From: Loxodes magnus
Lineage: Eukaryota; Ciliophora; Karyorelictea; Loxodida; Loxodidae
Assembly: GCA_946699065.1 (NCBI GenBank)
Contig: CAMPDV010000005.1
Span: forward strand, 496,001 to 560,000
Direction: 5' to 3'
DNA: 64,000 nt
The position numbers were made by a program, and so were the translations under genes. A model generated the notes under the pieces. The model saw only the letters and a program-made list of their open reading frames with translations, did no database searches and was not told the origin of the DNA. Positions 1-24,400 of this stretch are shown one piece after another. The first letter of the stretch is position 1, and every line of letters starts with the position of its first letter.

Positions 1-654
1 AATAGAGGAAAATGCGTTTGCACATTAGGCTATTAATTTGGAACTAGCGATTAAACAAGTTAGTGCATTAAACAAGAAATTAATTCTTAAAATGTTATAC
101 CCATAATACCCTGTACCATTCCTACTTACATTGCACTTACCAGCAATTAAAATGATGCAATTTCTTATTCTGGAGCATCAGTTAATTTATAAACTTAGCT
201 AGGTGCTGCTTTAAATGTTAATGGATTTACATTGGATTTTTGGTTAACTCTTGGATCCACTTAAAAAATGATATTTTTGTAAATAAAGGATACTTCGAGA
301 AAATTTCTTTAGTTAGCTATTAATCCAACTCAATTAACTTTAATATTAATAACTGACTTAAGCTCTGGATAAAAAACGCAATTTTCGTACTATGACTTAG
401 CTACTTGGCACCATTTCCTATTAAGCTTTACAACGACAAATATATAATACTGCTATTCAACTTTTTATTTTCCAAGTCACTGTGAAACATCTATAAACTT
501 CATAATAAATACAAATTAAGTTAATACAAACGATGCATTGACTGTTGGAGGAGGCACTGCAACTGGATATTCTTAATTTGATGGTAAAATTTTAGCTTTA
601 AGACTATATAATGATATTCACTCTAATTTGGGACTTACTGAAACTAAAATGAAC
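1..654 (+). repeat. Partial repeat unit 0 (Cys linker plus LamG module)
   Basis: Begins inside the linker (CVCTLGY at codons 5-11) and contains a complete LamG-like module: GFTLDFW, a hydrophobic strand (FLQLAIN), TWHHFLLSF, the two-cysteine turn YCYSTF...CE, the TVGGGT loop and FDGKILALRLYN. The first half of the unit lies upstream of the window. Confidence 0.88.
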
Positions 655-3600
655 TGCCTTACAATTTAAACTCCTTGCTGATAGAGTTGCTTTGGAACTT
701 GTTCTGATACAGATCCTCAACTAACTACAGGATGCTCAGTAAATAGTACGACATCAATGTTTACTGGGGTATGATATACAATAAATGCTGATAGTGAATA
801 CAAAATATATGGATTTAGCAATATCTTTAAAGGAGATTTATTGAACTAGCAGTATATGTAATATCAATTCTGAAGTACTTTAACTTATAGTACTACATCC
901 TATGATGTTTTTAAGTTAGATAATAATGGAGAATGCTCTTTAACTATTTCACATGTTAATAATCAATTTGACATAGTCATAGATTAAGCAGACAACAATG
1001 TAGATAGATCTTATTAAGTTTTAATTCCTTCCTACTCTACAACTTAAATAGCTTAAATTATTATTAGCATTATAGACTTAGGAACTCATTAATATGATTT
1101 GCAAATATGTGTGGATATTGATTCGAATAGTTAATGCGCCGGCGAAAAGGCTATAACTGGAGCTAATTGCATTCCTAAATTAAAGCATGCTTCTAATAGT
1201 TATTTATAATTCAATTCTTAAGTCTCATATTTAATAGCTGATTTGGAAATTTATGATTTAAGTACTTAAATTTAATTATAATGTGATACAAATAAATATA
1301 ATCAATTATTCCCTAATAGTGGTACTTGCTAATGTTCCTTATGCTTTTTGGATTCATTTTACAATCCAGCTACATCTTCAGCTTGCAACATTTCTATTCC
1401 TAGTTTTACAACAAGATATCCTGTTTCCAAATGTAGCTTACCAAGCGATTATATATACATTTCTTCCATTAGTAGATACTATTATACTTAATTCACATTA
1501 GGAGCTGACGAAGTTTTACAATCGTCTTTTCAATCTACAATAAGCGCAATTTAAAATATAAATGGATTTATAATTGACTTTTGATTTATAGCCACAGGAA
1601 AACACAACATGAATATTCTAGAAATTAAAGATAATTCTAACAAATTTATCTCAATTGGCTTAGATTAAGTCTAAAAAATACTCCACTTTTATACAGAAAG
1701 AACCGCTACTTAATAATTTTATGTTCCTTATTGTTCAAGCAATACATAGCACCATATCGTAGTTAGCTTTACAAATACAGAAACTTATTACTGTTACTCG
1801 GCTTATTTATTTCCATCTTCGTGCTATATGCGTACATTCACATTGGCTTTAAGCTAATTAAATTCAAATGATGAATTAAAAGTAGGTGCTGGAACTTTAG
1901 CAAACTATACTTAATTTGAAGGATATGTAATGGCTCTTAAATTTTCTGGGAAATACCATACTTTATTGTCCTTAACAGAAAATAAAATAGATTGCTTTTC
2001 ACTAAATTCCCCTTGTTGGCTAAATTGTGCTGGCTTTTGCAAATATAGCGACAACCCAACATATTACAATTGCTATACTGGTGCAAATAATTTGATATCT
2101 GATACTTATTAAACTTATGGTGTAAGCTCATTTATTGCTTACGGAAATGACCCAACAAAATTTTATTATGATATTTTTATGTAAACCTCATAAAGATATG
2201 AATATTGAGCAAAGCTTACTTATAACTCTTTAAACTATAATTTCTTTAAAATTTAAGGAAACGCTGTTTCTTGCACTGTTACAATGAGCATTACAGGAAA
2301 CATATTCTATCTGAGTTCTTCGTTTGCTAGTACTAAATAAATTTAGATTTCCGAATTTACTTCAGGAACAACTTAGTTTAGAGTTTAGTATCAATCAACT
2401 TATAACAATGCCACAAATGATTATACAATAAGATGGTGTGTAGTACCTGAATTCCATAAAAATCCTTAATTGTGCTAATACATATATAACTCTGGTTCAA
2501 CATGCAATATTGAGCAAAGCGCTACTAGCTTTATATAATTTCCAACATCAACTATAAACTACTAAATTGCATGATTTTCTTATTATAATTATGAACTTAC
2601 TAGCACAAATTGTACTTCAGTAAGTAAAACATACAACCCCAATTATAGCTCAATAGGCTTATGTATTTGCAGTCTAGGTTATAAATACAATATATACAGT
2701 CCTGGTTCATATGGTGCTACTTGTACTAGTTCTGCTCTTCCAAGCCTTCAAGAAACAAGTGGTAGATATCCATTTTCAACTTGCCCATACCCAACTGATT
2801 TTATAGAAATCTCAATTAATAATTAAGTAGCTAATGACTTCACTACGGGTGGAAGTACTCTTACAACTAACTTCCGTACTGCAATAGCTTCTATTATAAA
2901 CGCAGATGGATTTATAATATCTTTCTGGATTAAACTAAGCACAACAAGCAAAAATACAAGAGTCTTTGAAGTAAAGAACTCTCAAGCCTCAAATAAAATA
3001 TTTTTATCATTTTAAAGTTTAATGTATCAAGGAGTATTTCTATTCTTTTCAAATAGAACAGGAACAAGTTAAATGTTTAAAGCTCCTTACTACGATTAAA
3101 ATACTTGGCACTACTTAGTTGTAGGATTTTAAAATAATGGAACAAAATATTGTATTTCAACTTATTTAAACTCAGCCTCATATTGCTTTGATTTTAGTTT
3201 TACACTAACTCTAAGTCAAACTACTACTGATGATATAATCACTTTTGGAGATAGCACTTTTTCTTTTAGTGAATATTCACTTTACTCTTTCGAGGGGAAA
3301 ATTCTAAATTTCAAAGTATCTGGAAATACATTTAGCTCCTTGAATTTAAATGAAAACATTGTTGATTGCTGATCAGTAAGAACACCATGTTGGAAATATT
3401 GTTACGGAGAATGCTTGACTTAAGATCCATAAAATATTGCAACAACTACTTGCACAGTTAACTAACCACATGATCTCGTAACGACCACTTGATAAACAGT
3501 TGATGGAAGTCATAGTTTCAGTTATATTGGAAGCTCTTCCAGTTTATTTAACTACAATACATTTTTTTAGGATATTGCTATTTATAAATTTTGGTTAAAA

Positions 3601-6600
3601 GCAACTCCAAGTGCAACTTAATATCTGGTTTTCTTTATTGATGGACCTTCTTCTTCCTGCTGATTAAAATTATACGTCACCAATTAACTGTTCAATTTAG
3701 AAATAAATGATGGATCAAGTACTTCATCGTTTTAAGTGACAGTTAGTTAATGAACAAGTAATGAAGAATTAAGAGTAGAAATCTATTACATTTATAGCTC
3801 ACCATAATGATAAATAAAACTCTGTGTTACTAGAACTACTTTTGAACCATATTGCAGTTAAGGAACAATGACAAATATTTGCAAGCTTTCATATTTTTCA
3901 AATAGCTAAATTTAATTTCCTATTTCAGCTGTTTCGTTTCAAGTAAGAGGAGTTTATGTCTATTCATTTAGTCCATAATGCACAGGTCTGGATCTTAAGT
4001 ACAACTTTAATTGACCTTCTCTAGGATTTTGTACATGCTCACTTGGCTATAAAATGACTTTATCAGGTATTGATGAAATAACTTGTAGTACTTCAAGCAT
4101 TTTACCAATTTATGATGATTCTTACTCTGAAAGGTATCCGATACCCGTTTGTAGTTATCCTTCATCATGGGTATAAATCAATATAGCAAGTAAAATTAAT
4201 TAAGATACACCATTTTCATTTGTATCTGGTACAGATGAATGTAGTACAAACTTTTATTCTCTAGTTTCTGGATAAACTAATTTTGATAGTGGATTTATAC
4301 TTATCTTCTGATTCTAAATAAATTAAACTAATGTTCAATAAACAATTATGGAAATAAGAAGAGCTAGCAATAATGTATTTTTAAGCGTTGGAGTAGACAC
4401 AAATCAAGGAGTTCTTCTTTTTTACTCTCAAAGAATTACAACTTAAAAATTTGTTGGTCCGTTTGATTCTTCAAATACTTGAAACTATATAGTTGCTGGA
4501 TTTTCAACTACTTCTACTCTTTACTGCTACTCAAGTTAGACAAAACCGTCTTATTGTTATTCTAGAACATTCACTCTAAGTTTAAAAGATTTAGAGACTT
4601 TAGATCTCATTTATATAGGAAGCGGAACTTACTCAGGATATACGAAATATGAAGGAGATCTTTTAGGAGTAAAGATTTTGAATTAGAATTTTATCACTTT
4701 AGGCTTAAATTAAGATATAGTAGATTGCTGAACAACATTTACGCCTTGCAGATTAAATTGCTAAGGAATATGTAGTTCTACTACCTATCCTTAGTATGAT
4801 ACTACTACTTATTGCAATTAGCAGCCTTACATGTTGCAATAAGATACTTATTCTACTTGCGATAATTCTAACAGTATCTAAATTGTAGGAAGTAATTAAA
4901 CCAAATTTTATTATGATTTGTTCTAATAAAACATTTTGAGATACTAATTTTGGTTAAAGGCAACACGAACAGTTACTAGTTATACAGTATTCTAGATATT
5001 AGGAAGCAGTTCTTCCTGCTCACTGACTCTTTCAATTACTGATAATACTTTTAACTTAGTAATAGTATCAGGATCTACATATAGTTATTAAATGACTCTA
5101 GCTTCGTTTATAAGTACGATGGAATTTAGAATAACTATAGTAAATTAAATTAATGGTGCCAATTATGATTTCTAGTGGTGTATAGCTTATGATAACATAG
5201 AAATTAACGACTTAAAAATGTGTAGAAGTGCTACATAAACTACAACATGTAATATTCAACACTCTGCTACTAGTAAAATTATTTTTCCAACTACTCCATC
5301 AGTTACTATAAGCTACTAAGTCGCTTTAGCAATATTTTCAAATTATCTTCCTGCAAGCACCTGTACTCTTCCTAAATAATATAATCCTTATTACCCAACA
5401 TCAGATGATTGCGTTTGTAGTTTAGGAAATCAAATGGATTTAACTGGTGGAGGAACTAATACTATTACATGCAATGCTGATCCAATTTAAATAATTACCG
5501 ATGCAAGCTACACAAATAGATGGCCTTTAACAACTTGTGACTATCCGAAAAATTGGGTAAGCATTGATATATCTGGAGCAATAAATTAATATACTGAAAC
5601 TGTATTTACAACTGCCAGTAATGCTGTAAATACTAATTTTTATAATTTAGTCTAAGGATAAATTCCTTTTTCTAATGGATTTATTTTATCCTTTTGGTTT
5701 AAAACTTCAGAACCTTCTGCATAGATGAGAATGATTGAAATAAGAAAAGCTGATGGGAATGTCTTTCTTAGTATTTAAGTGAACACAGTATCATTTTCTT
5801 TATTATATTATACTCAAAGAACAACAACTCAAAGTTTCATGGTACCATTTGATGGTTCAAATACCTGGCACTATATAATTACAGGGTTTACATCAACAGG
5901 AACACTCCACTGCTATTCTAGTTATACGAAACCTTCTTATTGTTTTCAAAGATCAATGACGTTAGCACTAGATGCTTTATATTCGGATGATAAAATATAC
6001 GTAGGTGATGGAACATATAGTGGTTATTCATATTTCAAAGGAAGCATTTTGGCAGTTAAAATAATAGATGACTTATACTCTAGCTATAACTTAAATTAAA
6101 CAGTTGCTGATTGCTGAACAACATTTACGCCTTGCAGATTAAATTGCTAAGGAATATGTAGTTCTACTACCTATCCTTAGTATGATACTACTACTTATTG
6201 CAATTAGCAGCCTTACATGTTGCAATAAGATACTTATTCTACTTGCGATAATTCTAACAGTATCTAAATTGTAGGAAGTAATTAAACCAAATTTTATTAT
6301 GATTTGTTCTAATAAAACATTTTGAGATACTAATTTTGGTTAAAGGCAACACGAACAGTTACTAGTTATACAGTATTCTAGATATTAGGAAGCAGTTCTT
6401 CCTGCTCACTGACTCTTTCAATTACTGATAATACTTTTAACTTAGTAATAGTATCAGGATCTACATATAGTTATTAAATGACTCTAGCTTCGTTTATAAG
6501 TACGATGGAATTTAGAATAACTATAGTAAATTAAATTAATGGTGCCAATTATGATTTCTAGTGGTGTATAGCTTATGATAACATAGAAATTAACGACTTA

Positions 6601-8866
6601 AAAATGTGTAGAAGTGCTACATAAACTACAACATGTAATATTCAACACTCTGCTACTAGTAAAATTATTTTTCCAACTACTCCATCAGTTACTATAAGCT
6701 ACTAAGTCGCTTTAGCAATATTTTCAAATTATCTTCCTGCAAGCACCTGTACTCTTCCTAAATAATATAATCCTTATTACCCAACATCAGATGATTGCGT
6801 TTGTAGTTTAGGAAATCAAATGGATTTAACTGGTGGAGGAACTAATACTATTACATGCAATGCTGATCCAATTTAAATAATTACCGATGCAAGCTACACA
6901 AATAGATGGCCTTTAACAACTTGTGACTATCCGAAAAATTGGGTAAGCATTGATATATCTGGAGCAATAAATTAATATACTGAAACTGTATTTACAACTG
7001 CCAGTAATGCTGTAAATACTAATTTTTATAATTTAGTCTAAGGATAAATTCCTTTTTCTAATGGATTTATTTTATCCTTTTGGTTTAAAACTTCAGAACC
7101 TTCTGCATAGATGAGAATGATTGAAATAAGAAAAGCTGATGGGAATGTCTTTCTTAGTATTTAAGTGAACACAGTATCATTTTCTTTATTATATTATACT
7201 CAAAGAACAACAACTCAAAGTTTCATGGTACCATTTGATGGTTCAAATACCTGGCACTATATAATTACAGGGTTTACATCAACAGGAACACTCCACTGCT
7301 ATTCTAGTTATACGAAACCTTCTTATTGTTTTCAAAGATCAATGACGTTAGCACTAGATGCTTTATATTCGGATGATAAAATATACGTAGGTGATGGAAC
7401 ATATAGTGGTTATTCATATTTCAAAGGAAGCATTTTGGCAGTTAAAATAATAGATGACTTATACTCTAGCTATAACTTAAATTAAACAGTTGCTGATTGC
7501 TGAACAACATTTACGCCTTGCAGATTAAATTGCTAAGGAATATGTAGTTCTACTACCTATCCTTAGTATGATACTACTACTTATTGCAATTAGCAGCCTT
7601 ACATGTTGCAATAAGATACTTATTCTACTTGCGATAATTCTAACAGTATCTAAATTGTAGGAAGTAATTAAACCAAATTTTATTATGATTTGTTCTAATA
7701 AAACATTTTGAGATACTAATTTTGGTTAAAGGCAACACGAACAGTTACTAGTTATACAGTATTCTAGATATTAGGAAGCAGTTCTTCCTGCTCACTGACT
7801 CTTTCAATTACTGATAATACTTTTAACTTAGTAATAGTATCAGGATCTACATATAGTTATTAAATGACTCTAGCTTCGTTTATAAGTACGATGGAATTTA
7901 GAATAACTATAGTAAATTAAATTAATGGTGCCAATTATGATTTCTAGTGGTGTATAGCTTATGATAACATAGAAATTAACGACTTAAAAATGTGTAGAAG
8001 TGCTACATAAACTACAACATGTAATATTCAACACTCTGCTACTAGTAAAATTATTTTTCCAACTACTCCATCAGTTACTATAAGCTACTAAGTCGCTTTA
8101 GCAATATTTTCAAATTATCTTCCTGCAAGCACCTGTACTCTTCCTAAATAATATAATCCTTATTACCCAACATCAGATGATTGCGTTTGTAGTTTAGGAA
8201 ATCAAATGGATTTAACTGGTGGAGGAACTAATACTATTACATGCAATGCTGATCCAATTTAAATAATTACCGATGCAAGCTACACAAATAGATGGCCTTT
8301 AACAACTTGTGACTATCCGAAAAATTGGGTAAGCATTGATATATCTGGAGCAATAAATTAATATACTGAAACTGTATTTACAACTGCCAGTAATGCTGTA
8401 AATACTAATTTTTATAATTTAGTCTAAGGATAAATTCCTTTTTCTAATGGATTTATTTTATCCTTTTGGTTTAAAACTTCAGAACCTTCTGCATAGATGA
8501 GAATGATTGAAATAAGAAAAGCTGATGGGAATGTCTTTCTTAGTATTTAAGTGAACACAGTATCATTTTCTTTATTATATTATACTCAAAGAACAACAAC
8601 TCAAAGTTTCATGGTACCATTTGATGGTTCAAATACCTGGCACTATATAATTACAGGGTTTACATCAACAGGAACACTCCACTGCTATTCTAGTTATACG
8701 AAACCTTCTTATTGTTTTCAAAGATCAATGACGTTAGCACTAGATGCTTTATATTCGGATGATAAAATATACGTAGGTGATGGAACATATAGTGGTTATT
8801 CATATTTCAAAGGAAGCATTTTGGCAGTTAAAATAATAGATGACTTATACTCTAGCTATAACTTAA
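1..8866 (+). CDS. Giant LamG-repeat surface protein, 5' part in this window (5'-incomplete)
   Basis: Frame 1 (codons start at 1, 4, 7...) read with TAA/TAG = Gln and TGA = Trp. It holds the C-terminal half of one repeat unit, three diverged units with anchor cysteines at 655, 1993 and 3367, then array A copies with anchors at 4726, 6112 and 7498. LamG_3-like (concanavalin A-like sandwich) signatures recur: GFTLDFW, WHHFLLSF, FDGKILALRLYN. No start codon or signal peptide is visible because the gene begins upstream. The sense strand changes at TTAA 8863-8866. The coding sequence continues on the minus strand from 17141 downward, as shown by the uninterrupted array A unit across that junction when the block is flipped. 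Inferred role: secreted or membrane-tethered extracellular repeat protein. The frame and repeat family are certain by eye; the function is not. Confidence 0.92.
655..1992 (+). repeat. Repeat unit 1 (446 codons)
   Basis: Anchor CLTIQTPC then W (TGA), Q (TAG), SCFGTC. The first module has QFWSTLTY and the cysteine strand LQICVDID. The linker has CQCSLC. The LamG module has GFIIDFWF, the turn YCYSAY...SSC and FEGYVMALK. The usual Trp of the WHH strand is TAG (Gln) at 1747, a single-base change from TGG, so this module may be slightly degenerate. Confidence 0.87.
1993..3366 (+). repeat. Repeat unit 2 (458 codons)
   Basis: Anchor CFSLNSPC-W-LNCAGFC with TGG. The first module has YEYWAKLTY, its Trp written TGA, and RWCVVPEFH followed by QLC. 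The LamG module has GFIISFWIKL, TWHYLVVGF, the turn YC...YC and FEGKILNFKV. All landmarks sit in frame 1. Confidence 0.87.
3367..4725 (+). repeat. Repeat unit 3 (453 codons)
   Basis: Anchor C-W(TGA)-SVRTPC-W(TGG)-KYCYGEC, using both Trp codons inside one motif. The first module ends in LCVTRTTFEPYC. The LamG module has GFILIFWFQI and TWNYIVAGF with TGA as Trp, and the turn LYCYSS. It is closely similar to the array A unit that follows and is its likely parent. Confidence 0.87.
4723..8866 (+). repeat. Array A, forward part: tandem 1386-bp coding repeats
   Basis: Copies run 4723-6108, 6109-7494 and 7495-8866. The third is cut by the inversion and its last 14 bases lie at 17141-17128 on the minus strand. 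Each copy is 462 codons, keeps frame, and appears identical wherever I compared it, including synonymous sites. The anchor is CWTTFTPC-R-LNCQGIC: the usual Trp is replaced by AGA. LamG landmarks are GFILSFWFKT, TWHYIITGF and DDKIYVGDGT. Near-perfect identity implies recent expansion or homogenisation. Copy number may be misjudged by an assembler. Confidence 0.93.
8863..8866. other. Inversion breakpoint, left TTAA
   Basis: Left of this palindrome the sequence matches array A up to TATAAC; right of it the match stops and minus-strand coding begins. In intact array copies the same TTAA is followed by ATTAAACAG. That continuation is found, reversed, at the right breakpoint. Confidence 0.9.
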
Positions 8867-8931
8867 GGATTAGTAGTTGATACACATTATCCTTAACATT
8901 TCTACCAACATGGTGTAATACTAGTGAAGCA
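8863..8931 (-). repeat. Repeat unit 13, first 23 codons (cut off by the inversion)
   Basis: Anchor CFTSITPC-W(TGG)-QKCQGQC, then STTNPQ up to the TTAA. The rest of this unit lies at 17142-18438 on the plus strand. Joining the two gives 454 codons to the next anchor, a normal unit length and in frame, which is the strongest sign that the block was inverted. Confidence 0.9.
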
Positions 8932-11900
8932 ATCCATTTTATATCTATCTAATCCTAAGCTACTATATGTTTAACCATTTACTTTGAAAGCTAAAATTGA
9001 TCCTTCAAATTCTTGGTAAGTACTGAAGCTGTCAGGATCAGTAAAGCTTCCATCTCCTACTTAAATTTAGTCATTTGTAGTTAGATTTTATAAAACTAGT
9101 TTAAAGCTTCTTTTATAGCAAAAAGATGGATACAGCTAACTAGAATAGCAATATAAAGTATCTTAACTAGTGAAGCTCACCATAATATGATGCCAAGTTT
9201 TTGCTAGATCTATTGGAGCATTGAAATATTAAGCTATTCCCTATCTGTTACTATAAAAAAGTAAAACACCTGACCATTAGTTCAGCATAACAGTCAAAAA
9301 TATTGAATTAGCAATGCTAGTGTCTTTAATTTCAAATAATTTCATGTCTGCTGTATTAGATTAAGTAAACCATCAAGTTAATGTAAATCCATTAGAATTT
9401 ATAATACTACTAACAGCTGTATAAAAGTTAGTTGTGTATTCATCTGCTCCTACTGTGAAATCTTATTTGATATCTTAATTTATTCAAATACTTATCAAAT
9501 CGGTTGGATATCTACAGAAGGGAGGAGGATAACGATTTGGAGTTAAAGTTATTGATTGTATAGGACTTGAAGTGCATGTTATCTTATACTGTCCAGCTAC
9601 TAAACTACTTATATATCCTAATGTGCAAACACAAGCTCCTGCATTTCTGTAATTTGGATTATACTAATGCTATAGTTAGCATTATATGTTCTATTCTTAG
9701 TAGTTAAATATATCAATTCAAGCTACTTAATATGACTATATACTTGTAGTGGGAAATTCTATTTTTGAGCCTAATTTAGAAGCAATATTGCATGCATTTG
9801 ACAAAACATAAGATAAGCATATAGGTTCATAATAAGAAGGCGTTACGCATCATTCTAATTGATAGTCATTTGTAGCTTTTCTATATTAATTTTGAATGTA
9901 AATCTTGGCTTCTAAACTAGTAAATGAATCAACCGTAATCTAATAACTTGTAGTAGAAACAGTAGTTAGTGCTAAGTTAAAATAATTGCCTGTAACTGAA
10001 ACTTATATATTGCAATTATCTCCAATTAGATTTGTGAATATCACTTAAGATGGATTTTAAGTAGCTTTAATTCAGTATTCATATCTTATATATTAAGCCA
10101 TAAATAAATCGCTATAAAATATTGTATTATCATATCCGTTCTTCGAGTAGCTTTGGCTATTATCACAAGTAAAGTATGTATCATTTTTTAATCTATGTGA
10201 ATAGTATTTACTACAGTAATTTATGGCTTCTTTAAATTCAACGTTTGTTGTACTTTAGCATTCGCCTTAGCAATATTACCAGCATGGTGAATAAGTTGTC
10301 CAGCAATCTGCAAATTTTTCATTTAATCCTAAAGTAATCCAATCTGATCTTGTTATTTTTAAGGCTAAAATTTGTCCTTACATTTCTTCATACGTAGAAT
10401 AAGTTCCACTTCCAACAGTTATAAGATCATTTGTATTTAATTAAGCAAGAGTAAGTTAGAATTCTTTATTTTGGCAAACTGAAGCATACAAGTAAGTAGA
10501 TCAGCAAAATATTGACGAAGAGGAAGAAAAGCCTAATATAATATGTTGCCAATTATTATTTGCACCTCAATATGGTCCAATTAGAGTGTTTGAGCTAGGC
10601 CTCTAAGTATATACTTCAATTACTTTGATATTTGAATTATGATTGACTGATAAGAAAACATTAGTTGTATCTTTAATTTCGAATATTCTCTAATTAGCAT
10701 TTACACTAGTTTTATACCAGAATGATATGGTAAATCCATTTTAGTTTATAATACTATTGACTAACGTATAAAAGCTTAGTATATCTTCGTCAATTGTTGG
10801 TTTAGCGTATGTAGTAAGTGTTTTGTCATTTATCTTTCCACTGACTGAAACAGATATGAAATCAGGATAATTACATCTTTCAATAGGATATCTTGTAGAA
10901 AATCATGAGGGATCGGTAAGTGGTTATAATGCAACCGAAGCGCAGACTAATTCATCAGTATTTAAAAAGTTAGTTGAATAACCGATAGAACACATACAAT
11001 CTCCATATCCGTGATGCTTAGGATCAAATTGTATGTCAGGACAAGGCTCATTTCAAGAATAAGGATACAGTTTCACTTGAGCAATTTAATGAGATACTGA
11101 AGTTAAAGGAAAGCTTATAGTACTAGAAGCAGAATGTTAAATGTTACAAGTAGCTGGAATGATTGATTATATGCATTATGGTTCTTTATTATCTTAAGTT
11201 ACACATCATGTGAATGTGTATTTATTCGTTATTGAATCGTATTAATTTTAAACGTAAGATTTCACTTTTTAGTTAACCGTAAATTAGCTTAGTGTAATTG
11301 TATAGTGCTAATTAGTTGAAGCTGTTATATAGCAATCCCAAGTAACACTTGTAATTTTGATTTCTATAGAGCATTAATTAAAATGTCCAGTTAGTTTAAA
11401 GACAGTATAAGTTGATAAATCGTTAGTTAAAGTAGTGAAAAATTAATATTTAAAGGCATTATTTGTGAACATGTTATAATTGAAAATATTCTTATTATAT
11501 CCGTATATAGTAAGATCGTGTGTTACATTAATATTCTGCCAATTATTATCTTGTAGGAGATAATAAGAATGATACGAGCATGCACTAGTTTACGGATCAT
11601 CTGAACAAGTTCCTGCACAATTTAATCAGCATGGCGTTATAGATGTTAAGCAATCAGCTAATTTTTCATCTAAATTGAGATGCGTATAAGTATCTTATAT
11701 TACTCTTAAAGCTAGAATTTTTCCTTTTAATTATTCATAAGTACTATATGTTCCATCGCCAACTTTTATAGTATCTCCAACTACTAAATTACTAAAAGTC
11801 AATTAAAAATCTCTTAAATAGCAATAAGAAGAAAATCCATATGAAGAGTAGCAGTATTTAGTTTATGATGTAGTAAAGGAAATTATTATATGATGCCAAC

Positions 11901-14900
11901 TATTTTAATCATAAAATGGAACAGCGAAAGCCTGTCTATTTGCTCGATTAGAATAAAATATAACTGACTTAGCTACATTATCTATGTTTGAGGATAAAAA
12001 CACGTTTAATCCACTTGCAATTTCAAACATTCTCATATTTTTATTGGTTACAGTTAGTGTAAACCAAAATGTTAGTGTGAAACCGTTCGAATTCATTGTT
12101 GGATGAACTAAATTATAAAAGTTCGTAGTTGCTTCGTCACCTACAGTATCAGAAAATAAAATTCCTGTCAACTAGTTAATATTTGAGGTTATATCAACAG
12201 AAATATATGATGGTCATGAACAAATTGTTATTGGATATCTATTAACTAATGCTCCATTATTAATGCTAGAAATAAAACTATAAGGCTAACAAACGCTATC
12301 ATAAGACCCAGATCCTCCGTTCAAATCTAGTTTATATCCTAAGCTGCATGCACATGAAAATGTTGTAAGATACTGTCTATAAGCATAAGAGGGACAAGCT
12401 AAATCTTAGAATGTTCACAGAACCAGTTAACTAAGACTATAGCTTATGGAACTTAAGGGAAACTGTAAGTAGTTGCCAGCTGAATGCTTGATAAAGCATG
12501 ATTTATCTAACGAATATAGTTAACACTAAGGTTCTTCATCGATAGCTTATAAACATCAATAAAAGTTATATTTAGGACTTACAAACTAATTTTAGAGAGT
12601 TATTATATACTGATCATTAGCAGCAGCGTTTTAAAGAGTCATTTGATAGTTATAATTATAAACTCCTGAAATGATTGAAAGAGAATATTGCCATTATTAA
12701 ACTGATGAAGTAATACTACAATAAGAATTATCAATTAGTTAAAAAAGAGTGTATGATGTAGCAGTATCCGTGATTTTAATTCTAAAACTAATTTCTTAAA
12801 AGTTATATTCAAATAAGTTGAAATAGTATTTACTTGGATTATAGAAGCAATTCTATACTTTGTTATTTGAGTCTATTACTGTCCATGTATTATCCAAAAC
12901 CCCATAATATTTCTTCGAGACACATTGAGATGACTAAACATCTGTTAGTGATTAGCATTAGCCAACACAAGATTAAATGCAAGGTGTGTGCACAGTTCAA
13001 CAATCAACTACGTTTTCGTTAAGCGACAAAGATGTTTTAGTTTAGGAAGTTATCCTTAATGCCAAAATTTTTCCTATAAATTACGAATATGAGGGATAAG
13101 TTCCATCTCCAAATTTTATTACATCACTTGAAACTAAAGATGCTAACGTAAGGGAAAAATGAGATCGTGTATAGCAGAATGAAGGCAAGTTTAAACTGGA
13201 ATAGCATGCTAAAGTACCTGAACTTTCAAATCCTACTACAATATGATGCCAACTTTACACATCGTAATAAGGAATTTCAAATCTTGAAGGAGAAATTCTT
13301 TCTGTATAGAATAGCAAAATGCTTCTATAAATATTAAGTAAAACAGATAGTCATTTATTATTAGCACTATTATAAATTTCGAAAAATGTCATATAATTAC
13401 TACCTCCATTTTAAATGAATCAGAAACTCATTGTAAAGCCATTCGAGTTAATGACAGAACTAACCAACGAGTAAAAGTTAGTGGAAACTTCATCACCCAA
13501 AGTGCTTGTAAAAGTTCAACCATTATTCTAATTTACACTTCCAGATATATCTATTTTTATGAAATCACTTGGGTAATTACAGTATGTGATAGGGAATCTA
13601 TTAGTCCAACTAGAATCAGTTATACCAAGAATACTGGATCCAGTCTAACACTTTTATACGCCAGAGTTAAAATAACTTTAATAGCCCAAAGAGCATACAC
13701 ATAGTCCTCTTGCAAGATCATAATATGGATTGTACATATGTTATTATGAACAATCAGGACTTTAAAACTATATTGTTAAATAGGCGAAATTATAGCTAGG
13801 AGTAGCAGTTGGAAATTTAATGCTTCCTAACTCATGATAAGGGAAGCAAACTGAAGAAACTGTTTTCGAAGAGCACAATTGATGATCAATGGAGTAATAA
13901 GGTTAAACGCAAAATATAAGCTAATAGGAATTAGTTGAAATATACTTAATTTCATATTAAATATTTACTATTTAAGAAACCGAAGTTGGAATTGTTAAGA
14001 GTAAAGAATTACTTGAAGATGCCGTATTTTCGAAAGTATATTAGTTGGTTTAAACAATTATATTTATTTAGCAAGCTTTTCCAATTTGTTCAAAAATAGT
14101 TCTTGCTTAGCCATCTTAAGTAAACGAAACTCAGAAGCTAACTCTTGTGTATTTATGCTGAAAAAATAAATCATAATAATATGTAGTATTATCTGATAAT
14201 CCATATGACTAACCACTTCCAGTCAAATAAGTGGAATCTTTAATAGTAACGTTTTATGAAAAGCATGTAGTTTCAGAAATGTATTAGACATTAGAAGTGC
14301 TTGTGCACTAGCCATAACAGTTTAACCAGCAAGGAGTTAGTGTTGTTCAGCAATCAGCAACTGTTTAATTTAAGTTATAGCTAGAGTATAAGTCATCTAT
14401 TATTTTAACTGCCAAAATGCTTCCTTTGAAATATGAATAACCACTATATGTTCCATCACCTACGTATATTTTATCATCCGAATATAAAGCATCTAGTGCT
14501 AACGTCATTGATCTTTGAAAACAATAAGAAGGTTTCGTATAACTAGAATAGCAGTGGAGTGTTCCTGTTGATGTAAACCCTGTAATTATATAGTGCCAGG
14601 TATTTGAACCATCAAATGGTACCATGAAACTTTGAGTTGTTGTTCTTTGAGTATAATATAATAAAGAAAATGATACTGTGTTCACTTAAATACTAAGAAA
14701 GACATTCCCATCAGCTTTTCTTATTTCAATCATTCTCATCTATGCAGAAGGTTCTGAAGTTTTAAACCAAAAGGATAAAATAAATCCATTAGAAAAAGGA
14801 ATTTATCCTTAGACTAAATTATAAAAATTAGTATTTACAGCATTACTGGCAGTTGTAAATACAGTTTCAGTATATTAATTTATTGCTCCAGATATATCAA

Positions 14901-17145
14901 TGCTTACCCAATTTTTCGGATAGTCACAAGTTGTTAAAGGCCATCTATTTGTGTAGCTTGCATCGGTAATTATTTAAATTGGATCAGCATTGCATGTAAT
15001 AGTATTAGTTCCTCCACCAGTTAAATCCATTTGATTTCCTAAACTACAAACGCAATCATCTGATGTTGGGTAATAAGGATTATATTATTTAGGAAGAGTA
15101 CAGGTGCTTGCAGGAAGATAATTTGAAAATATTGCTAAAGCGACTTAGTAGCTTATAGTAACTGATGGAGTAGTTGGAAAAATAATTTTACTAGTAGCAG
15201 AGTGTTGAATATTACATGTTGTAGTTTATGTAGCACTTCTACACATTTTTAAGTCGTTAATTTCTATGTTATCATAAGCTATACACCACTAGAAATCATA
15301 ATTGGCACCATTAATTTAATTTACTATAGTTATTCTAAATTCCATCGTACTTATAAACGAAGCTAGAGTCATTTAATAACTATATGTAGATCCTGATACT
15401 ATTACTAAGTTAAAAGTATTATCAGTAATTGAAAGAGTCAGTGAGCAGGAAGAACTGCTTCCTAATATCTAGAATACTGTATAACTAGTAACTGTTCGTG
15501 TTGCCTTTAACCAAAATTAGTATCTCAAAATGTTTTATTAGAACAAATCATAATAAAATTTGGTTTAATTACTTCCTACAATTTAGATACTGTTAGAATT
15601 ATCGCAAGTAGAATAAGTATCTTATTGCAACATGTAAGGCTGCTAATTGCAATAAGTAGTAGTATCATACTAAGGATAGGTAGTAGAACTACATATTCCT
15701 TAGCAATTTAATCTGCAAGGCGTAAATGTTGTTCAGCAATCAGCAACTGTTTAATTTAAGTTATAGCTAGAGTATAAGTCATCTATTATTTTAACTGCCA
15801 AAATGCTTCCTTTGAAATATGAATAACCACTATATGTTCCATCACCTACGTATATTTTATCATCCGAATATAAAGCATCTAGTGCTAACGTCATTGATCT
15901 TTGAAAACAATAAGAAGGTTTCGTATAACTAGAATAGCAGTGGAGTGTTCCTGTTGATGTAAACCCTGTAATTATATAGTGCCAGGTATTTGAACCATCA
16001 AATGGTACCATGAAACTTTGAGTTGTTGTTCTTTGAGTATAATATAATAAAGAAAATGATACTGTGTTCACTTAAATACTAAGAAAGACATTCCCATCAG
16101 CTTTTCTTATTTCAATCATTCTCATCTATGCAGAAGGTTCTGAAGTTTTAAACCAAAAGGATAAAATAAATCCATTAGAAAAAGGAATTTATCCTTAGAC
16201 TAAATTATAAAAATTAGTATTTACAGCATTACTGGCAGTTGTAAATACAGTTTCAGTATATTAATTTATTGCTCCAGATATATCAATGCTTACCCAATTT
16301 TTCGGATAGTCACAAGTTGTTAAAGGCCATCTATTTGTGTAGCTTGCATCGGTAATTATTTAAATTGGATCAGCATTGCATGTAATAGTATTAGTTCCTC
16401 CACCAGTTAAATCCATTTGATTTCCTAAACTACAAACGCAATCATCTGATGTTGGGTAATAAGGATTATATTATTTAGGAAGAGTACAGGTGCTTGCAGG
16501 AAGATAATTTGAAAATATTGCTAAAGCGACTTAGTAGCTTATAGTAACTGATGGAGTAGTTGGAAAAATAATTTTACTAGTAGCAGAGTGTTGAATATTA
16601 CATGTTGTAGTTTATGTAGCACTTCTACACATTTTTAAGTCGTTAATTTCTATGTTATCATAAGCTATACACCACTAGAAATCATAATTGGCACCATTAA
16701 TTTAATTTACTATAGTTATTCTAAATTCCATCGTACTTATAAACGAAGCTAGAGTCATTTAATAACTATATGTAGATCCTGATACTATTACTAAGTTAAA
16801 AGTATTATCAGTAATTGAAAGAGTCAGTGAGCAGGAAGAACTGCTTCCTAATATCTAGAATACTGTATAACTAGTAACTGTTCGTGTTGCCTTTAACCAA
16901 AATTAGTATCTCAAAATGTTTTATTAGAACAAATCATAATAAAATTTGGTTTAATTACTTCCTACAATTTAGATACTGTTAGAATTATCGCAAGTAGAAT
17001 AAGTATCTTATTGCAACATGTAAGGCTGCTAATTGCAATAAGTAGTAGTATCATACTAAGGATAGGTAGTAGAACTACATATTCCTTAGCAATTTAATCT
17101 GCAAGGCGTAAATGTTGTTCAGCAATCAGCAACTGTTTAATTTAA
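8863..17145 (-). CDS. Inverted block of the same giant gene (seven repeat-unit anchors, read on minus strand)
   Basis: The minus strand carries the same protein family in one frame, with anchor cysteine codons starting at 17124, 15738, 14352, 13002, 11652, 10305 and 8931. Spacings are 1386, 1386, 1350, 1350, 1347 and 1374, all multiples of three. LamG signatures on this strand include GFTMSFWF, GFTLTFWF, GFTISFWYKT, SWHHIVVGF and NNWQHIILGF. Both ends lie in TTAA. Flipping the 8283-bp interval puts it in frame with both flanks: the left side completes array A copy 3, and the right side joins TNPQ to YIQGTTC, matching the NPQY...TC pattern of other units. As deposited, a plus-strand transcript would carry the antisense of about 2,760 codons, so the allele shown would be broken unless the block is flipped back. 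Alternatives are an assembly or library artefact, or a polymorphic or programmed inversion. Confidence 0.9.
8932..10305 (-). repeat. Repeat unit 12 (458 codons, inverted block)
   Basis: Anchor CWTTYSPC-W(TGG)-QYCQGEC, with Gln after Trp written TAA. The LamG module has GFTLTWWF with adjacent TGA and TGG as Trp, LFEIKDTS, a WHHIMVSF strand and a VGDGSF loop. Confidence 0.85.
10306..11652 (-). repeat. Repeat unit 11 (449 codons, inverted block)
   Basis: Anchor CLTSITPC-W(TGA)-LNCAGTC. The LamG module has NGFTISFWYKT, IFEIKDTT, NNWQHIILGF, the turn IFCWSTYLYASVC, the ITVGSGT loop and MQGQILALKI. Confidence 0.86.
11653..13002 (-). repeat. Repeat unit 10 (450 codons, inverted block)
   Basis: Anchor CWTVHTPC-I-QSCVGQC; the usual Trp is Ile here. 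The LamG module has NSNGFTLTFWF, MFEIASG, a WHHIII strand and a GDGTYST loop. The strand order is the same as in the other units, so function is probably kept despite the Trp loss. Confidence 0.86.
13003..14352 (-). repeat. Repeat unit 9 (450 codons, inverted block)
   Basis: Follows array A copy 5 in the coding sense. Anchor CWTTLTPC-W(TGG)-LNCYGQC. The first module has FCVQPYYSIDHQLC. The LamG module has GFTMSFWF, SWHHIVVGF, the turn ACYSSLNLPSFC, the IKFGDGT loop and FIGKILALR. Confidence 0.87.
14356..17145 (-). repeat. Array A, inverted part: two further 1386-bp copies
   Basis: Copies 4 (17127-15742) and 5 (15741-14356), plus the tail of copy 3, lie on the minus strand and appear identical to the forward copies. 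With the block flipped they make a continuous five-copy tandem array. In the orientation shown they form an inverted repeat of about 2.8 kb with the forward copies, separated by about 5.5 kb. Confidence 0.93.
17142..17145. other. Inversion breakpoint, right TTAA
   Basis: Minus-strand array A sequence ends exactly here, and frame-1 plus-strand coding resumes with TATATTTAAGG. Together with 8863-8866 it bounds a reciprocal inversion of 8275 bp (8283 bp including both TTAA). No target-site duplication beyond TTAA, and no terminal inverted repeat of a transposon, is visible. Confidence 0.9.
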
Positions 17146-18438
17146 TATATTTAAGGAACAACTTGCCTAAGTGGACACCATTTAAAAGACGATATTTATT
17201 CGACAATCAGTAGCATTGGCACTTAATTATCTTGGCAAGCTAATGATAATACGAAGTTCTATTATAATCCATTCCACTAAAGCATACTTAGATATGAATT
17301 CTGAACGTAACTTACTTTTACTGGCACATAATATAAAATCTTTAATTTGGTTGGAAATACTGGTAATTGTGATATTTCTCTCAAAGTAAGTAATAACGTA
17401 TTCTAATTGGACTTAACATCTACTTCTAGCTACAGTTCTCAAATAACAATTTCTTAGTTTACATCTACCCTAGAAGCTAAAATAATTATTGCAAATTATT
17501 ATAAATCAGCTACAAACAATTTTGATTTAAAATGGTGTATTATTCCAGATTATAACGAAGCTAATTGCTTAACTTTGACAAGTATTTCCTCATGCAATTT
17601 CTACCAAAATTAATATTCAAAGATTACATTCCCTTGAACATCTGTTAGTTATTAAATTGCTTGGATTGAAGTTCTGGATTATTTTGAAGGAACAACATGC
17701 AATTAAGTAACTTTATATAATCCTTTTTGGCCATAAGAAGGTCCATGTATCTGTTCTCTTGGGTATGTAATGGATGTATCAGGAGGATCTAATTAAATAA
17801 TATGTACAGTGTAAGCTATCTAAAGTATAAGAAATTTTGCTTCTAGATTTCCAGTGCAAGTATCTAATTATCCTTCCTATGTAGTGCTATAAACAAGCGA
17901 TACCTATCCTAATTATTATATAAGTTCTTCTACAAGCAATTACGTAAATGATTACAGTGTTTACACTGGTTTAAGTTCCTAATTGAATCAAAATGGGTTT
18001 ACTTTATCATTTTGAATATCAACTTCTGTGACTCGCAGTATGATTTTTTTCGAGATTAAAACTTCAAATAGTAGATTTTTAACTATTGCTATTAATTCAC
18101 TTTCAAAGGTAATAGTTTTTGTTAGCGACTTAAACGGAGGTTAAGGATTTTAGTCACCATATTACTCTGCTGCATCGTGATAACATATAATAGTTTCTTT
18201 TAGTAATACATAAACAGTTTATTGCTGAACTTCTTTCGAATTAACTTCTAGTTGCTACACAAAGACTAATTTTGCCTTAAATTCCGGAGTTCTTACAAGT
18301 TCGCATAAACTTAGTATTGGAAATGGAACAGCAACAGGCCTTTTGCAAGGTTATGCAGTTTTTGAAGGATATTTATTAGCAGTTAGATACTTTAATCAAA
18401 TTCCTTCGTAATTGTCAATTGGACAGTCACTTGCAGAT
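17142..18438 (+). repeat. Repeat unit 13, remainder
   Basis: Starts YIQGTTCLSGHH, the normal continuation of an anchor ending NPQ. The first module has LKWCIIPDYNEANC. The LamG module has GFTLSFW (TGA), SWQHIIVSF, the turn VYCWTSFE...SSC, the LSIGNGT loop and FEGYLLAVRYFN. Confidence 0.9.
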
Positions 18439-21400
18439 TTTTGGGGTGTTTATACTCCTTGTTGGCAAAATTGCTGAGGATTATGTTTATAAAGTTTACC
18501 AATAGGTTTAAGTTAATGCACATAAAATATTCCTCATGATAAATATAAAACAGGATGGTAAAGCTTAGCTACGCCTTAAACAATACTTGGAGCTGACATT
18601 TCCTTCTATGGTGACATCTGATATTAAGAAACAGGTATTTATGAGTTTTGGATAAAAGGTTTAGTAGATTCTTCTACTTAATATAACTTGCTTTAAATTT
18701 AGAATTCAGCATGTACCACTAAAATAAGTGCTCTAAATTCTAACATTATAGTAGATATTTCTTAAGGAAGCTTATAGCTTATTTAAAATGGTTTAACTTC
18801 TTTTTCAACCTTTGGAGAAGCTCTAATTTAACTAGCAATTATAAAAAAATCAGGCAGGATTTTTGATTTAAGAATATGTGCTACTTAATCCTATTATGAG
18901 CCTATTTGTACTTATTTAAACTCTACAACGATTTCAACTGTTTGCAGCATTAGATAAGAGTCTATAATCACATTAGGAAATCCCATTTAAGCTCTTCAAA
19001 TAAGAAGTTTGAAAATATATGATAAAGTTCCAAACATTTATTGTTCCCAGTGGCAATACAATCCTCTGTGGAATTATTAGCATGGATGTATTTGTACATT
19101 AGGTAAAGTAATAAGTTCATCTAATCTTTGTGACAATCAAATAATAGACTATACTTAAAGAATACCTGTCACTTTTATTTCTGTACCTTCTTATACCAAT
19201 GTTTTAATATCTCCATATTAGTCTAGAACATTTTAATGACCTACTAATGATTGAATTTAAGATACCATTGCTAATTAAATTGGATTCCCACTTAATTCAA
19301 ATGGCTTTATGCTAGATTTCTGAATTAAAAGTACAAACGTTAATCGAAATGGAACCATTTTAGATATTTTAGCTTCTAACTAGATTGATAGAAAGCTTTC
19401 AATAGTAGTAGATAATTATGCTTACATTTTTAGACTATATTCAGATTTTAGCTCTAATAGACCTGCTAGCGTTCCTTTTTATTATGATGCAGGATGATAA
19501 TATGTAATCATTGGATGGAAATTGAATCAGGGAACAAAATACTGCGTTTCATCATATCAAAAATAGTCAAAATGCTTTAAAAGAGATTTTGAAGTAAAAA
19601 GTAGTATAATAACAAGTACTGATATAATTAGAGTTGGTGGAAGTTTTCATGGCTGGTGATATGATGATTTGGATGGAAAAGTTCTGAACTTGCGATTATT
19701 TAACATGCCATATGATAGCATTCCAATAACTGAAGCTTATGTAGATTATTTAACTCTTCTAACTCCCTGTTGGAAAAATTGTTTAGGAATTTGCCCTGCT
19801 AATTCGCCTGATTATTAAAACTGCTCTTTAAATGCTGCTCATAGGTATTTCTAATCATCTTATACTTCGATTACTTCTAGTTATAGCTTCTCACTTAATG
19901 GATACGACACTAGTTTATTAAGTAATCCTTTCCTTTAAAACTATGCAGCTTATTCATTTTGAGCGAAATTAACTGTTTCTGTAACAGAATACAATGTGTT
20001 TGAAATTATAAATGCAGGATGTACTTTGACAGTTTCTGCAGTAGATAACAAATTCATTTTAAAGACTTATTCTACAAGTTTATAGGTTACAATATCTGCC
20101 TATTCATCAATAGAAGCTTCATTTCTAATTTGAATGAAAAATAATGGAGCAAATCATGATATTTCCTTTTGTGTAAGTCAAATAAATTACGAACCTCAGT
20201 GCATATAAGCAACCATAAACACAAATTGATGTAGATTTGAATATTTAAGCCAATTAAAATTTTAAAAGAGTGTTTAAGATTATTAAGTTAGCGATTTAAA
20301 AATATACAACAGTGATTCTAAAATATCAGGAAATTGCTATAAATCGCACTAATATAATCCAACTTATCCTGATCTAGTTCAATGCCACTGTTCACTTTGC
20401 TATGCTACTTCTTATAATCCTATCACTAACTTAATATAATGTACTCAATCAATTCCTTCTTTTACTCCTAGATATCCTGTTAGTAAATGCAAGCTTCCTT
20501 CTGATTTAATAACCCTCTCTTTAATATCTAGTTATGTTTAAACATAATTTGCTGCTTCAATTGTTGATGAGAAGATTGATTTAAGTTTTAAAAGCACAGT
20601 ATCATCTATTATTAATGCTAATGGGTTTACAATGGATTTCTGATTTACAATAGACCCAACAGCTTCAGAATGATTAGAACTAATGGAAATAAGGGATTTA
20701 AGTGGCATATTTTTAGGCATTGGTATAAATAGATTTTAAGAATCTATAACAGTTTATTCAGAAAGATTATCTAATACATATCAAATTTAGTTTCCTTACT
20801 GTCATACTGTTACATGGCATCATGTCATTCTCAGCTTTACAAGTAATATTCTAATGGCTTGCTATTCTTCCTATTAGTTTCCATCTACATGTTGAACTAG
20901 GACTTTTAGTTTACTACTTACTTATTTAAATAACAATGATAAATTGACAATAGGAAATGGAACCTTAATTGGGTGGAATTAATTCTAAGGTAGTGTCATG
21001 GCATTAAGATTTTCGGGCAAAACTTATACTGAAATAGGATTGAATTAGTAAATATCAGATTGCTGGTCAACTTTAACTCCCTGCTGACTTAATTGTAAAG
21101 GAGTATGCTAGGATTTAGCAAATCCATAATATGATACATCATCCACGTGCACGTAATATATTCCTCATACATTGACTAATGATATTTACAGGACAATTGG
21201 CCCCTCACTTTAATACTATGGAGATGATAAAACTTTATTTTACAACAATCTGTTTTGATAAGATGTAATAAGATATGAGTTCTGAGCAAAACTTACCTTA
21301 CAAAGTACTTAGTATACAATATTCTAATTAATGGGTAACTTAGGTAGTTGCTCTATATCTCTATTCGTAACTGGAAACGTTTTTAATCTTCATATAGATA

Positions 21401-24400
21401 CAGCAACAATAGATACTGATCTTTATATAACTCTACTTTAATTTTAAAGTTCCTTTGAATTGGCTGCTAGAGTTAAAAATACTTATAATCCTAATACTGA
21501 TGACTATAATATTGAATTATGCTTAATAGGAGATAATTTAGAACCTACTTGCAGATAAGCTACTTAAAAGCCAACTTGTAATATTGACTAATCATCAACT
21601 AGTTATATAATGTTTCCTTCAGGAGCTTTTACCTATGAAATAGCATGAATTAGAATATATAATCATGAAAACATTCAAACTTCTTGCGATTCTAAGGCTA
21701 AATAATATAATCCTAATTGGCCTAATCCTGGAGATTGTGTTTGTAGCTTAGGCTATTAGATGGATCTCTCAAATAGTGGAGCTAATACATTGACTTGCTA
21801 TGCTTAAGCAATTTCATCAATTACAACTGATTCTTCGAGATATCCTGTTACAGTATAAAATATCCCAAACTATATTCCTCTTACATCTTTATAATAGTCT
21901 TCCATAACTTTCTAAACTGCAATAACCAGTGATGATATAATAGGATACAATTTGTATACTCCTTTAAGTGGTAATTAGAATTCTAATGGATTTACATTAA
22001 CCTTCTGAATCTATATCTAAACATACAACAACTATGATATTCTAGAAATACTTAAAGCTGATACTTCTTCCTTTTTACGAATTTCATTAAATAATCCAAG
22101 AGCAACTTTCATATTCATAGGCCATGGCTAAAGTTTTTAGGCTCCTTTGTATTCTGATATACTCCAGTATTGGCACTATATAGTAGTTTCATTTTCAAAT
22201 ACAAAGACTGTCTTTTGCTGGTCTTCTTTCAAATATCCTTCTTTCTGCTTTGATAGACCTTAGTTTACTCTGAATTCTGGAAATGTTGGACCTGGTTGAA
22301 CTTTATCTTTAGGGACTGTAAGTACAGTAGGAAATGTAGGATTTGAAGGGAAACTGCTAGCATTAAGATACATTGCAAAATCCCATGATTAACTTTCCCT
22401 AGATAAATACTTAGTAGATTTTTGGGCTCTTTATACTCCTTGTTGGGAATACTGCTAAGGAACATGTGAAGCAACCACAAACTTTCCATTATAATACTCT
22501 GAATGCAATAGCAAGGTTCCTCATACAACCTACATTAGTGGCTTATAATAAATAACAGCTCCTTCATCTATAAACTTATATGGTTGAGATTAATTTTACC
22601 AAGGGAACGTTTTCTTATCAGACTAACTAATTTACTAAATGAGGTTTGAAAGTTAAAGCAATTCTAACAAATATAGTGTTTACTAAATTATAAATGTAGG
22701 ATGTACTATGACACTATCTCATTAAAGCAATATTTGATATCTAGAATTTAGTATTGGACCATCATACAGCATAACTGTCAAAGCTTATCTAAGTACAAGT
22801 ATTTTTTATGTATATCTCAAAATCTATAAAGTATCTGTAGGAGTATACAGCTTTTAATGATGTGTTACTTAATAGGATTATGATACTAAATGCGTATATA
22901 ATAATGCTTTATCTCTAGCGTCTACTTGCAACTTATAGCACAAAAATTCATATTCTCAACTAGGAAATGCCATTCAAACTTATTAAGTCTCCTGAATAAG
23001 AATTTACAATTAGCAAAACCTTTAAGATTGCTCTGCTTAATTTTAATATAATGCTCTTAGTCCTATTTAAGGTGAATGCTTGTGTTGCTTAGGAAAGATT
23101 ACTACGTTATAGCCAACTTCTTATACTTGCAGTGCAGCTACTATAAGTCCTAAAGATTAAGTTGTTTTACAAACTGTTCCTATTTATGATGATCTTAATC
23201 TGGCATGGAATAATTTACTCTATAGTTTTCCTGGCAGTCTCCCAACAGATGTAACACTAAATTTTATAGCTAATCTTGATACAGCTCTTAATATACCAGG
23301 AATTACATTCGAATTCTGAATCGCCCCTGATCTTACAGCAGTTGCTGCATAGGAAAAAATGATGATTTTTGAAATTTCAGATAATTCAGCACATTAATTC
23401 ATTTAAATAGGAATAGACATGAAGAAATATGCCTTTAAATATTGGAGTGGCATAACTTAAACAGGATTAGAAGCTCCTTAATATTATGGTAAGACCTGGT
23501 AGAAACTTGTTATAGGGTTGAAGCAAACTCAAACATAGCACTGCATTTCAGCTTATAGATACGTATCTAAGTGCCTTATTTATGAAAATACATTACTACT
23601 AGATTTCTCTTAAATAGATGCTAATTATAAATTGAGGATTGGTTAGGGAACTTATACTGGATAGTTTTCTAGTTATAGTTATTTTAAGGGAAAATTGCTA
23701 TAGTTCAGAATGTTTAATTAACATTTTGATGCACTTAGCATAGATCAATAATATGTAGATTCTCTCACTTTGCTTACTCCTTGCTGGCTAAATTGTTTAG
23801 GAAAATGCCCTGACGATAGTCCTTAAATTACAGACTGTTTGCAATACTCTCCACACATAATAAATGATTTTTAGCCTAGCTATGTTTAAATTGTTTCTGA
23901 TATGCAATATTATGGGTATCATCAAGACTTTACTGAAGATCCATTTATTCAAAAAACAGCCATTTTTAGATTCTGAACAAAAGTAACAAAAAGTACCGTG
24001 CAGTATGATATTTTTAAAATAGCTAATACAGGATGTAGTGTTGTTATCTCAGTAGTTAATAACAGCTTCAAAATTCTAATTGCAGGTACAACTTATGTAC
24101 TAGATGTTGATAACTATAGTTCTACTTTAGAACTTTAAATTGAACTAAAGATTATCAAAATAACTAGTCATTCTTTTGATTTCCATTTCTGTTTATTCGA
24201 ATCAGCAAAAGAACCAACATGCTAACGCCAGTATAATGTTAATGATATTCCTTGTTAGCTGTCTCATGAAAACAGTTATCTGATGTTCCCTTAAGGAAGT
24301 ACATAGTACTGGATAAATTATTTAACTGTATGCAATTATGAAATCTCTAATACTTGTACAGACTCAATGTAATATAATCCCTAGTGGCCCGTTTTTAGTC

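What the first reader, a model, noticed from the sequence alone, without database searches (positions are those of the whole stretch)
8863..17145. Reciprocal 8.3-kb inversion inside a coding sequence, cut at TTAA on both sides
Seen: coding sense flips to the minus strand between TTAA 8863-8866 and TTAA 17142-17145, and flipping the block back restores frame, array A copy 3 and normal unit spacing on both sides. Known: piggyBac-type transposases cut at TTAA leaving 4-base palindromic overhangs, which are compatible in either orientation, and domesticated relatives do programmed DNA excision in several ciliates. Inference: the block may have been excised at two TTAA sites and religated backwards, either as a developmental rearrangement error, a programmed switch of the number of displayed repeats, or a germline polymorphism. 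TTAA is common in AT-rich DNA, so a chance microhomology inversion or a library artefact remains possible.
Basis: partly seen in the sequence, partly recalled or inferred. Interest (0 to 1): 0.88.

Follow-up and report, generated by a model that had tools for sequence, protein, structure and literature searches.

The report
Recent inversion in giant ciliate gene
An 8.3-kb piece of a giant repeat gene in a freshwater ciliate has been flipped exactly in place, while three sister copies of the gene keep the normal order; it looks like a recent accidental rearrangement rather than a programmed one, though reads from the two kinds of nuclei could still overturn that.

Summary
The window is C5:496001-560000 of a 705.73-Mb assembly, the size of the Loxodes magnus somatic (MAC) assembly (706 Mbp). 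One frame (TAA/TAG=Q, TGA=W) runs through it except 8863-17145, coded on minus. Flipping that block gives 42 unit anchors in one series and five identical 1386-bp units. Three paralogues read unbroken across junction 2 with one TTAA, so the contig's order is derived. Units 4-5 in the block are this copy's own: it flipped in situ, after the array amplified. The joints share exactly TTAA; no base is lost. The piggyBac reading is weak: no terminal repeats, no PF13843 hit (silent control), none in the genome paper, and the MAC-sized assembly carries the broken order. A neighbouring 62-kb inversion splits paralogue P2 without TTAA overlap. Best explanation: a recent end-joining inversion, frequency unknown. 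No reads could be examined, so an artefact is unlikely but not excluded. The genome paper left unscrambling unaddressed; this locus makes it testable.

The parts
1..64000 (+). Part of one giant gene copy (P3), frame +0, TAA/TAG=Q and TGA=W. It seems to start about 3 kb before the window with a signal-peptide-like MNLIVLLLFYFSFLSGQS and to end about 0.9 kb after it.
8863..8866 (.). Joint 1: TTAA shared by the left flank (end of array-A unit 3) and the flipped block
8867..17141 (-). Inverted block, coded on minus (8279 bp between TTAA starts; 8283 bp with both TTAA)
17142..17145 (.). Joint 2: TTAA shared by the flipped block and the right flank; a single TTAA at the un-inverted site in three paralogues
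4723..8866 (+). Array A, units 1-3 (1386 bp each), identical to one another
14341..17145 (-). Array A, units 4-5 inside the flipped block; identical to units 1-3, each 29 mismatches from P2's single A unit
8867..14340 (-). Diverged units that follow array A in the un-inverted gene; over 8863-15741 the block differs from P2 at 45 of 6879 positions
17146..33248 (+). Right flank, collinear with P2 C5:436356-420252 (about 99% identical)
   Evidence: window coordinates there are 1 too high

Best explanation
This is a real, recent, in-situ inversion of 8.3 kb inside one copy (P3) of a small family of giant repeat-protein genes, in a genome that matches the Loxodes magnus MAC assembly. Shown: the un-inverted order is ancestral, the block is P3's own DNA, it flipped after array A had amplified to five identical units, and no base was lost or gained at joint 2 (against three paralogues) or at joint 1 (against the array). 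Inferred: two double-strand breaks fell within TTAA sites 8.3 kb apart and the freed segment was religated backwards by end joining. TTAA is self-complementary, so a centred blunt cut, a 4-base stagger (as left by topoisomerase II or a transposase; recalled) or annealing of 4-base microhomology would all leave this product. The event was probably not programmed, and is most likely carried on one haplotype of a diploid genome as a damaged allele. Whether it is heterozygous, fixed or limited to somatic nuclei is not known.
For: 42 collinear units in one frame only after flipping. Zero-mismatch array across joint 1 after flipping. Of four other places with right-flank sequence (a lower bound by the tool's own note) three reach the joint, and all three are un-inverted and continuous across one TTAA (P2, C5:750 kb, C7716). 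Units 4-5 in the block match P3's own array (0 mismatches) and not P2's unit (29 mismatches); high identity with P2 runs across joint 2 and drops only from about 17426 (right-flank list). P3 against P2 shows constraint (pN/pS 0.38, 0.42, 0.56) and P3 keeps one frame through its units, so the disruption looks young. The paper describes a diploid genome with about 0.6% heterozygosity, assembled by Falcon from HiFi reads without unzipping, where one orientation of a heterozygous inversion could enter the primary contig. A second gene-splitting inversion lies next door (C5:407165-469403).
Against: No reads could be examined. One search found no other copy above P2's 97%, so no un-inverted P3 allele is seen in the assembly and heterozygosity is an assumption. 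Both joints on the same 4-base palindrome with no loss is neater than much end joining. The second inversion also looks nearly exact on its spacer side (weak: 104 of 2000 random pieces score as well), and in both inversions a TTAA lies within 4 bases of each cut. Two inversions in one 314-kb stretch could point to a special process or to assembly trouble.
Confidence: 0.72

Rival explanations
1. Assembly or chimeric-read artefact in a cluster of near-identical copies.
For: The cluster holds copies mostly 97-99% alike and arrays with no mismatch; Falcon overlaps were allowed at 96% identity and contigs were not phased.
Against: Two reciprocal joints agree to the base. The joint-1 30-mer occurs once in the genome, so it is not copied from another locus. 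The block has P3-specific bases. [quoted passage not shown] the supplement was not seen).
Confidence: 0.12
2. TTAA-specific cutting by a domesticated piggyBac-type transposase, with the excised piece religated backwards.
For: TTAA at both joints, nothing lost. In Tetrahymena six intragenic IESs are flanked by TTAA repeats (PMC5182062, passages). In the neighbouring inversion TTAA lies 1 and 4 bases from the cuts.
Against: No CACTTT-like terminal repeat; no PF13843 match (control silent); the paper finds no PiggyMac; the neighbouring 62-kb inversion is not cut inside TTAA; TTAA occurs about every 70 bp.
Confidence: 0.06
3. Programmed or nucleus-specific inversion (DNA scrambling without IESs, or a display switch).
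For: The paper says unscrambling was not directly addressed; the block ends are base-exact.
Against: The MAC-sized assembly has the broken order, opposite to unscrambling; three paralogues are un-inverted; no inverted repeat beyond TTAA was seen within 30 bp of the joints in the restored order (not searched further out); the paper found no classical IESs and no editing small RNAs.
Confidence: 0.04
4. Template switching or conversion from the inverted paralogue P2, which runs the other way about 40 kb upstream, wrote the block in reversed.
For: P2's plus strand has the block's orientation; the block is 99.35% like P2.
Against: The block holds two A units of the P3 type, while P2 has one and it differs at 29 positions; the P2-like tract continues past joint 2 (right-flank list).
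Confidence: 0.04

Closest known systems
Spontaneous intragenic inversion by end joining or microhomology (structural variant in a tandem gene cluster; recalled kind)
   Same: Base-exact reciprocal joints with a short shared word; one copy affected, paralogues normal
   Different: Both joints on the same palindrome TTAA with no loss, inside a giant repeat gene of a karyorelict ciliate; allele frequency unknown
Tetrahymena intragenic TTAA-flanked IESs (piggyBac-related excision; PMC5182062, passages)
   Same: TTAA at both ends, exact joints in coding DNA
   Different: Here the segment is coding and retained but flipped; no CACTTT terminal repeats; no PiggyMac reported in Loxodes
Oxytricha-type scrambled genes with inverted MDSs and pointers (recalled; search listing only)
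   Same: An inverted coding segment with a short shared word at both ends
   Different: No extra sequence between block and flanks; the broken order is in the MAC-sized assembly; the pointer would be one self-complementary TTAA used twice

Membership tests
Recent in-situ inversion (structural variant) | Un-inverted order in related copies | tested here: met
   All three other copies whose match reaches the joint are un-inverted; a fourth, partial match does not reach it
Recent in-situ inversion (structural variant) | Block is the copy's own DNA | tested here: met
   Units 4-5: 0 mismatches to units 1-3, 29 to P2
Recent in-situ inversion (structural variant) | Present in sequenced molecules at some allele frequency | not testable with these tools
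   No reads held
piggyBac/PiggyMac TTAA excision | TTAA at both ends | tested here: met
piggyBac/PiggyMac TTAA excision | Terminal inverted repeats inside TTAA | tested here: not met
   7 of 30 inner bases alike, no CACTTT within 30
piggyBac/PiggyMac TTAA excision | A DDE_Tnp_1_7 transposase in the genome | tested here: inconclusive
   0 hits, but the control genomes rang in 0 of 14; PMC11441545 reports none
Scrambled genes (developmental unscrambling) | MAC holds the ordered gene, MIC the scrambled one | tested here: not met
   The assembly of MAC size holds the broken order; the MIC assembly was not available, so only half is tested
Scrambled genes (developmental unscrambling) | Eliminated sequence (IES) between segments | tested here: not met
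   The block abuts both flanks with only TTAA shared
Site-specific DNA inversion switch | Flanking inverted recombination sites and a recombinase | tested here: inconclusive
   Within 30 bp of the restored joints the shared inverted word is TTAA only; recombinases were not searched

The most novel reading that the evidence does not exclude
Loxodes MACs and MICs differ in the orientation of this segment: a reversible or nucleus-specific inversion at TTAA sites without any IES. It would be DNA scrambling in a karyorelict, uncoupled from DNA elimination, and the neighbouring 62-kb inversion would be a second case.
Probability: 0.05. Interest if true: 0.9.

Novelty: new member of a known kind. Interest (0 to 1): 0.42.

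Why it matters
The 2024 Loxodes magnus paper states that unscrambling was not directly addressed and is likely absent (passage). This locus gives base-exact joints, with three un-inverted copies for comparison, at which sorted MIC and MAC reads can be counted. If heterozygous, it is a clean natural example of a loss-free inversion in a giant gene. It also warns that two of the three gene copies on this stretch of contig (P2 and P3) are split by inversions, which will mislead gene models.

Tried and rejected
Conversion from the inverted paralogue P2 was rejected as the block's source by the A-unit differences. Homologous recombination between inverted repeats was rejected, because the long inverted arms in the contig follow from the inversion splitting array A. 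TTAA as strong evidence for a TTAA enzyme was rejected on frequency and on the second inversion. Searches for relatives gave nothing on the inversion: viral contigs (run in a wrong frame and discarded), genome contigs (a prokaryote collection), phages, protein database (one distant hit, P0001). Literature searches in the open-licence library listed no described case of this inversion that I noticed. I saw listings and abstract starts only, except passages and section 10 of PMC11441545 and passages of PMC5182062.

Errors of my own: window coordinates are 1 too high. One search crashed after making its alignment, which read. In one search the block comparison and the U4/U5 rows were out of register and were replaced; its right-flank list is in register. 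The P1 comparison at the end was out of register and is not used. One search's frame choice for the P2 printout was wrong and only its motif list and the readable P1 and P2 C-terminal parts are used. In one search, P1 joint b was one base off register (about 2 shared bases, not 1) and joint c was not a clean joint. One search left out window 17146-31500 because exceeded the size limit.

Full report
What the window is. The window is G000:C5:496001-560000 of an assembly of 705,730,643 bp in 7843 contigs. The size equals the 706-Mbp Loxodes magnus MAC assembly in PMC11441545 (passages read), and the code fits: in aligned repeat units TGA falls at tryptophan columns (31-fold enriched) and TAA/TAG lean to glutamine (3.4- and 2.9-fold) over glutamate (2.2- and 2.6-fold). 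Karyorelicts use table 27, where UGA is tryptophan or stop (passage). The identification as L. magnus MAC is strong but inferred.

The gene. One frame runs through the window once the block is turned. It seems to begin about 3 kb upstream with a signal-peptide-like start and to end about 0.9 kb downstream (my reading of the translation). It has 42 unit anchors spaced 1308-1431 bp. The model of one unit (mean pLDDT 77) is mostly strands, and its best PDB matches are laminin and neurexin LG-domain pairs, though whole-chain TM scores are only about 0.2-0.3. Of five pieces scanned, Pfam Laminin_G_3 passes its cut-off in one (8866-14373), is below it in two, and is not listed in two.

The inversion. 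Between TTAA 8863-8866 and TTAA 17142-17145 the coding strand is minus. Turning that block back restores the frame, the unit series and array A on both sides. Array A then has 5.01 identical 1386-bp units from 4723 to 11667. A frame model over C5:266001-580000, started from the flipped gene and retrained, printed this as the only same-frame plus-minus-plus flip, at 8852-17149; it called 41% of the stretch coding, mostly copies of this gene, so its power elsewhere is small.

Ancestral order. The same contig holds a close copy, P2, on the minus strand (C5 about 407,165-451,936) with its unit anchors in un-inverted order and a single A unit. Block 8863-15741 aligns to P2 436357-443235, and the right flank from 17142 to 436360 downward; the overlap is the four bases TTAA. 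A genome search with 16900-17500 gave 15 matches. Right-flank sequence reaching the joint lies here and at three other places: P2, C5:750215-750573 and C7716:53770-54128; a partial match at C5:692893 does not reach it (the tool calls its counts lower bounds). All three copies read continuously across one TTAA. The contig's order is thus derived. The 30-base inverted joint 1 occurs once in the genome.

In situ and recent. Units 4 and 5 inside the block are identical to units 1-3 and differ from P2's unit at 29 positions, so the block is P3's own DNA and flipped after the array amplified. The stretch of high identity with P2 spans joint 2 and falls from about 17426, not at the joint (right-flank list). 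Between P3 and P2, pN/pS is 0.38 (right flank), 0.42 (left flank) and 0.56 (block; 7.5 synonymous and 15.5 nonsynonymous changes), which indicates constraint.

Mechanism. With no base lost or gained and a 4-base palindrome at both joints, two cuts inside TTAA and reversed religation suffice. A centred blunt cut, a 4-base stagger and microhomology annealing cannot be told apart, because TTAA is its own complement (reasoning; topoisomerase II staggering is recalled). TTAA is common: 898 in the window against 910 expected, 2.9% of inverted 4-mer pairs; random breakpoint pairs include it in 0.11%.

Against a piggyBac process. The block's inner ends are unlike (7 of 30 bases) and lack the CACTTT repeat of Tetrahymena TTAA IESs. 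PF13843 gave no hit, but the control genomes rang in 0. The paper reports no PiggyMac, best E-value 0.12, and no editing small RNAs (section 10 read). The adjacent 62,239-bp inversion C5:407165-469403 cuts P2 between the equivalents of window 62407 and 62408: the gene-side joint is exact with no shared base, beside but not inside a TTAA. Its spacer side resembles the spacer after P3 across the joint, but 104 of 2000 random pieces score as well. With 14-18 TTAA per kb and seen after the fact, this is suggestive at most.

Artefact or real. I could not see reads. Against an artefact: two reciprocal exact joints, copy-specific bases in the block, and SMRT subreads of the sorted nuclei used for base-modification calls, which suggests unamplified DNA if they are the same libraries. 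For caution: unphased Falcon contigs at a 96% overlap identity in a cluster of near-identical copies, and no second, un-inverted P3 allele in the assembly.

Consequence (inference). Because UGA is sense far from the poly-A tail, the flipped block is not closed: in the plus frame it has 2761 codons with 83 TGA, so a long but partly nonsense protein is possible.

Verdict. The locus is useful because it allows a direct MIC/MAC orientation count on a question the genome paper left open.

Noticed in passing
C5:407165-469403 (outside the window; in L021-L026 and L002): A 62-kb inversion splits paralogue P2: its last ~3.1 kb (like window 62408-65499) lies at C5:469404-472494 on the plus strand while the rest is on minus. 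Undoing it would put three gene copies head to tail.
   Followed up: partly
window 35515-50707: Array B: about 11.3 units of 1341 bp with no mismatch (identical run of 13.85 kb at that shift). P1 and P2 show a single matching unit. Its true length may exceed what reads could resolve.
   Followed up: partly
C5:383657-404451 (outside the window): Copy P1 lacks large internal parts (two deletion joints with 0 and about 2 shared bases) and carries an ~875-bp insertion at C5:401346-402221.
   Followed up: partly
C5:415414 and 419542-420727 (outside the window): P2's best coding frame changes several times there, which suggests frameshifts.
   Followed up: no
window 1-64000: The gene (about 68 kb, over 22,000 codons by my reading of its ends) has no evident intron and ends in a Cys-rich, transmembrane part distantly related to P0001 (24% identity).
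   Followed up: partly
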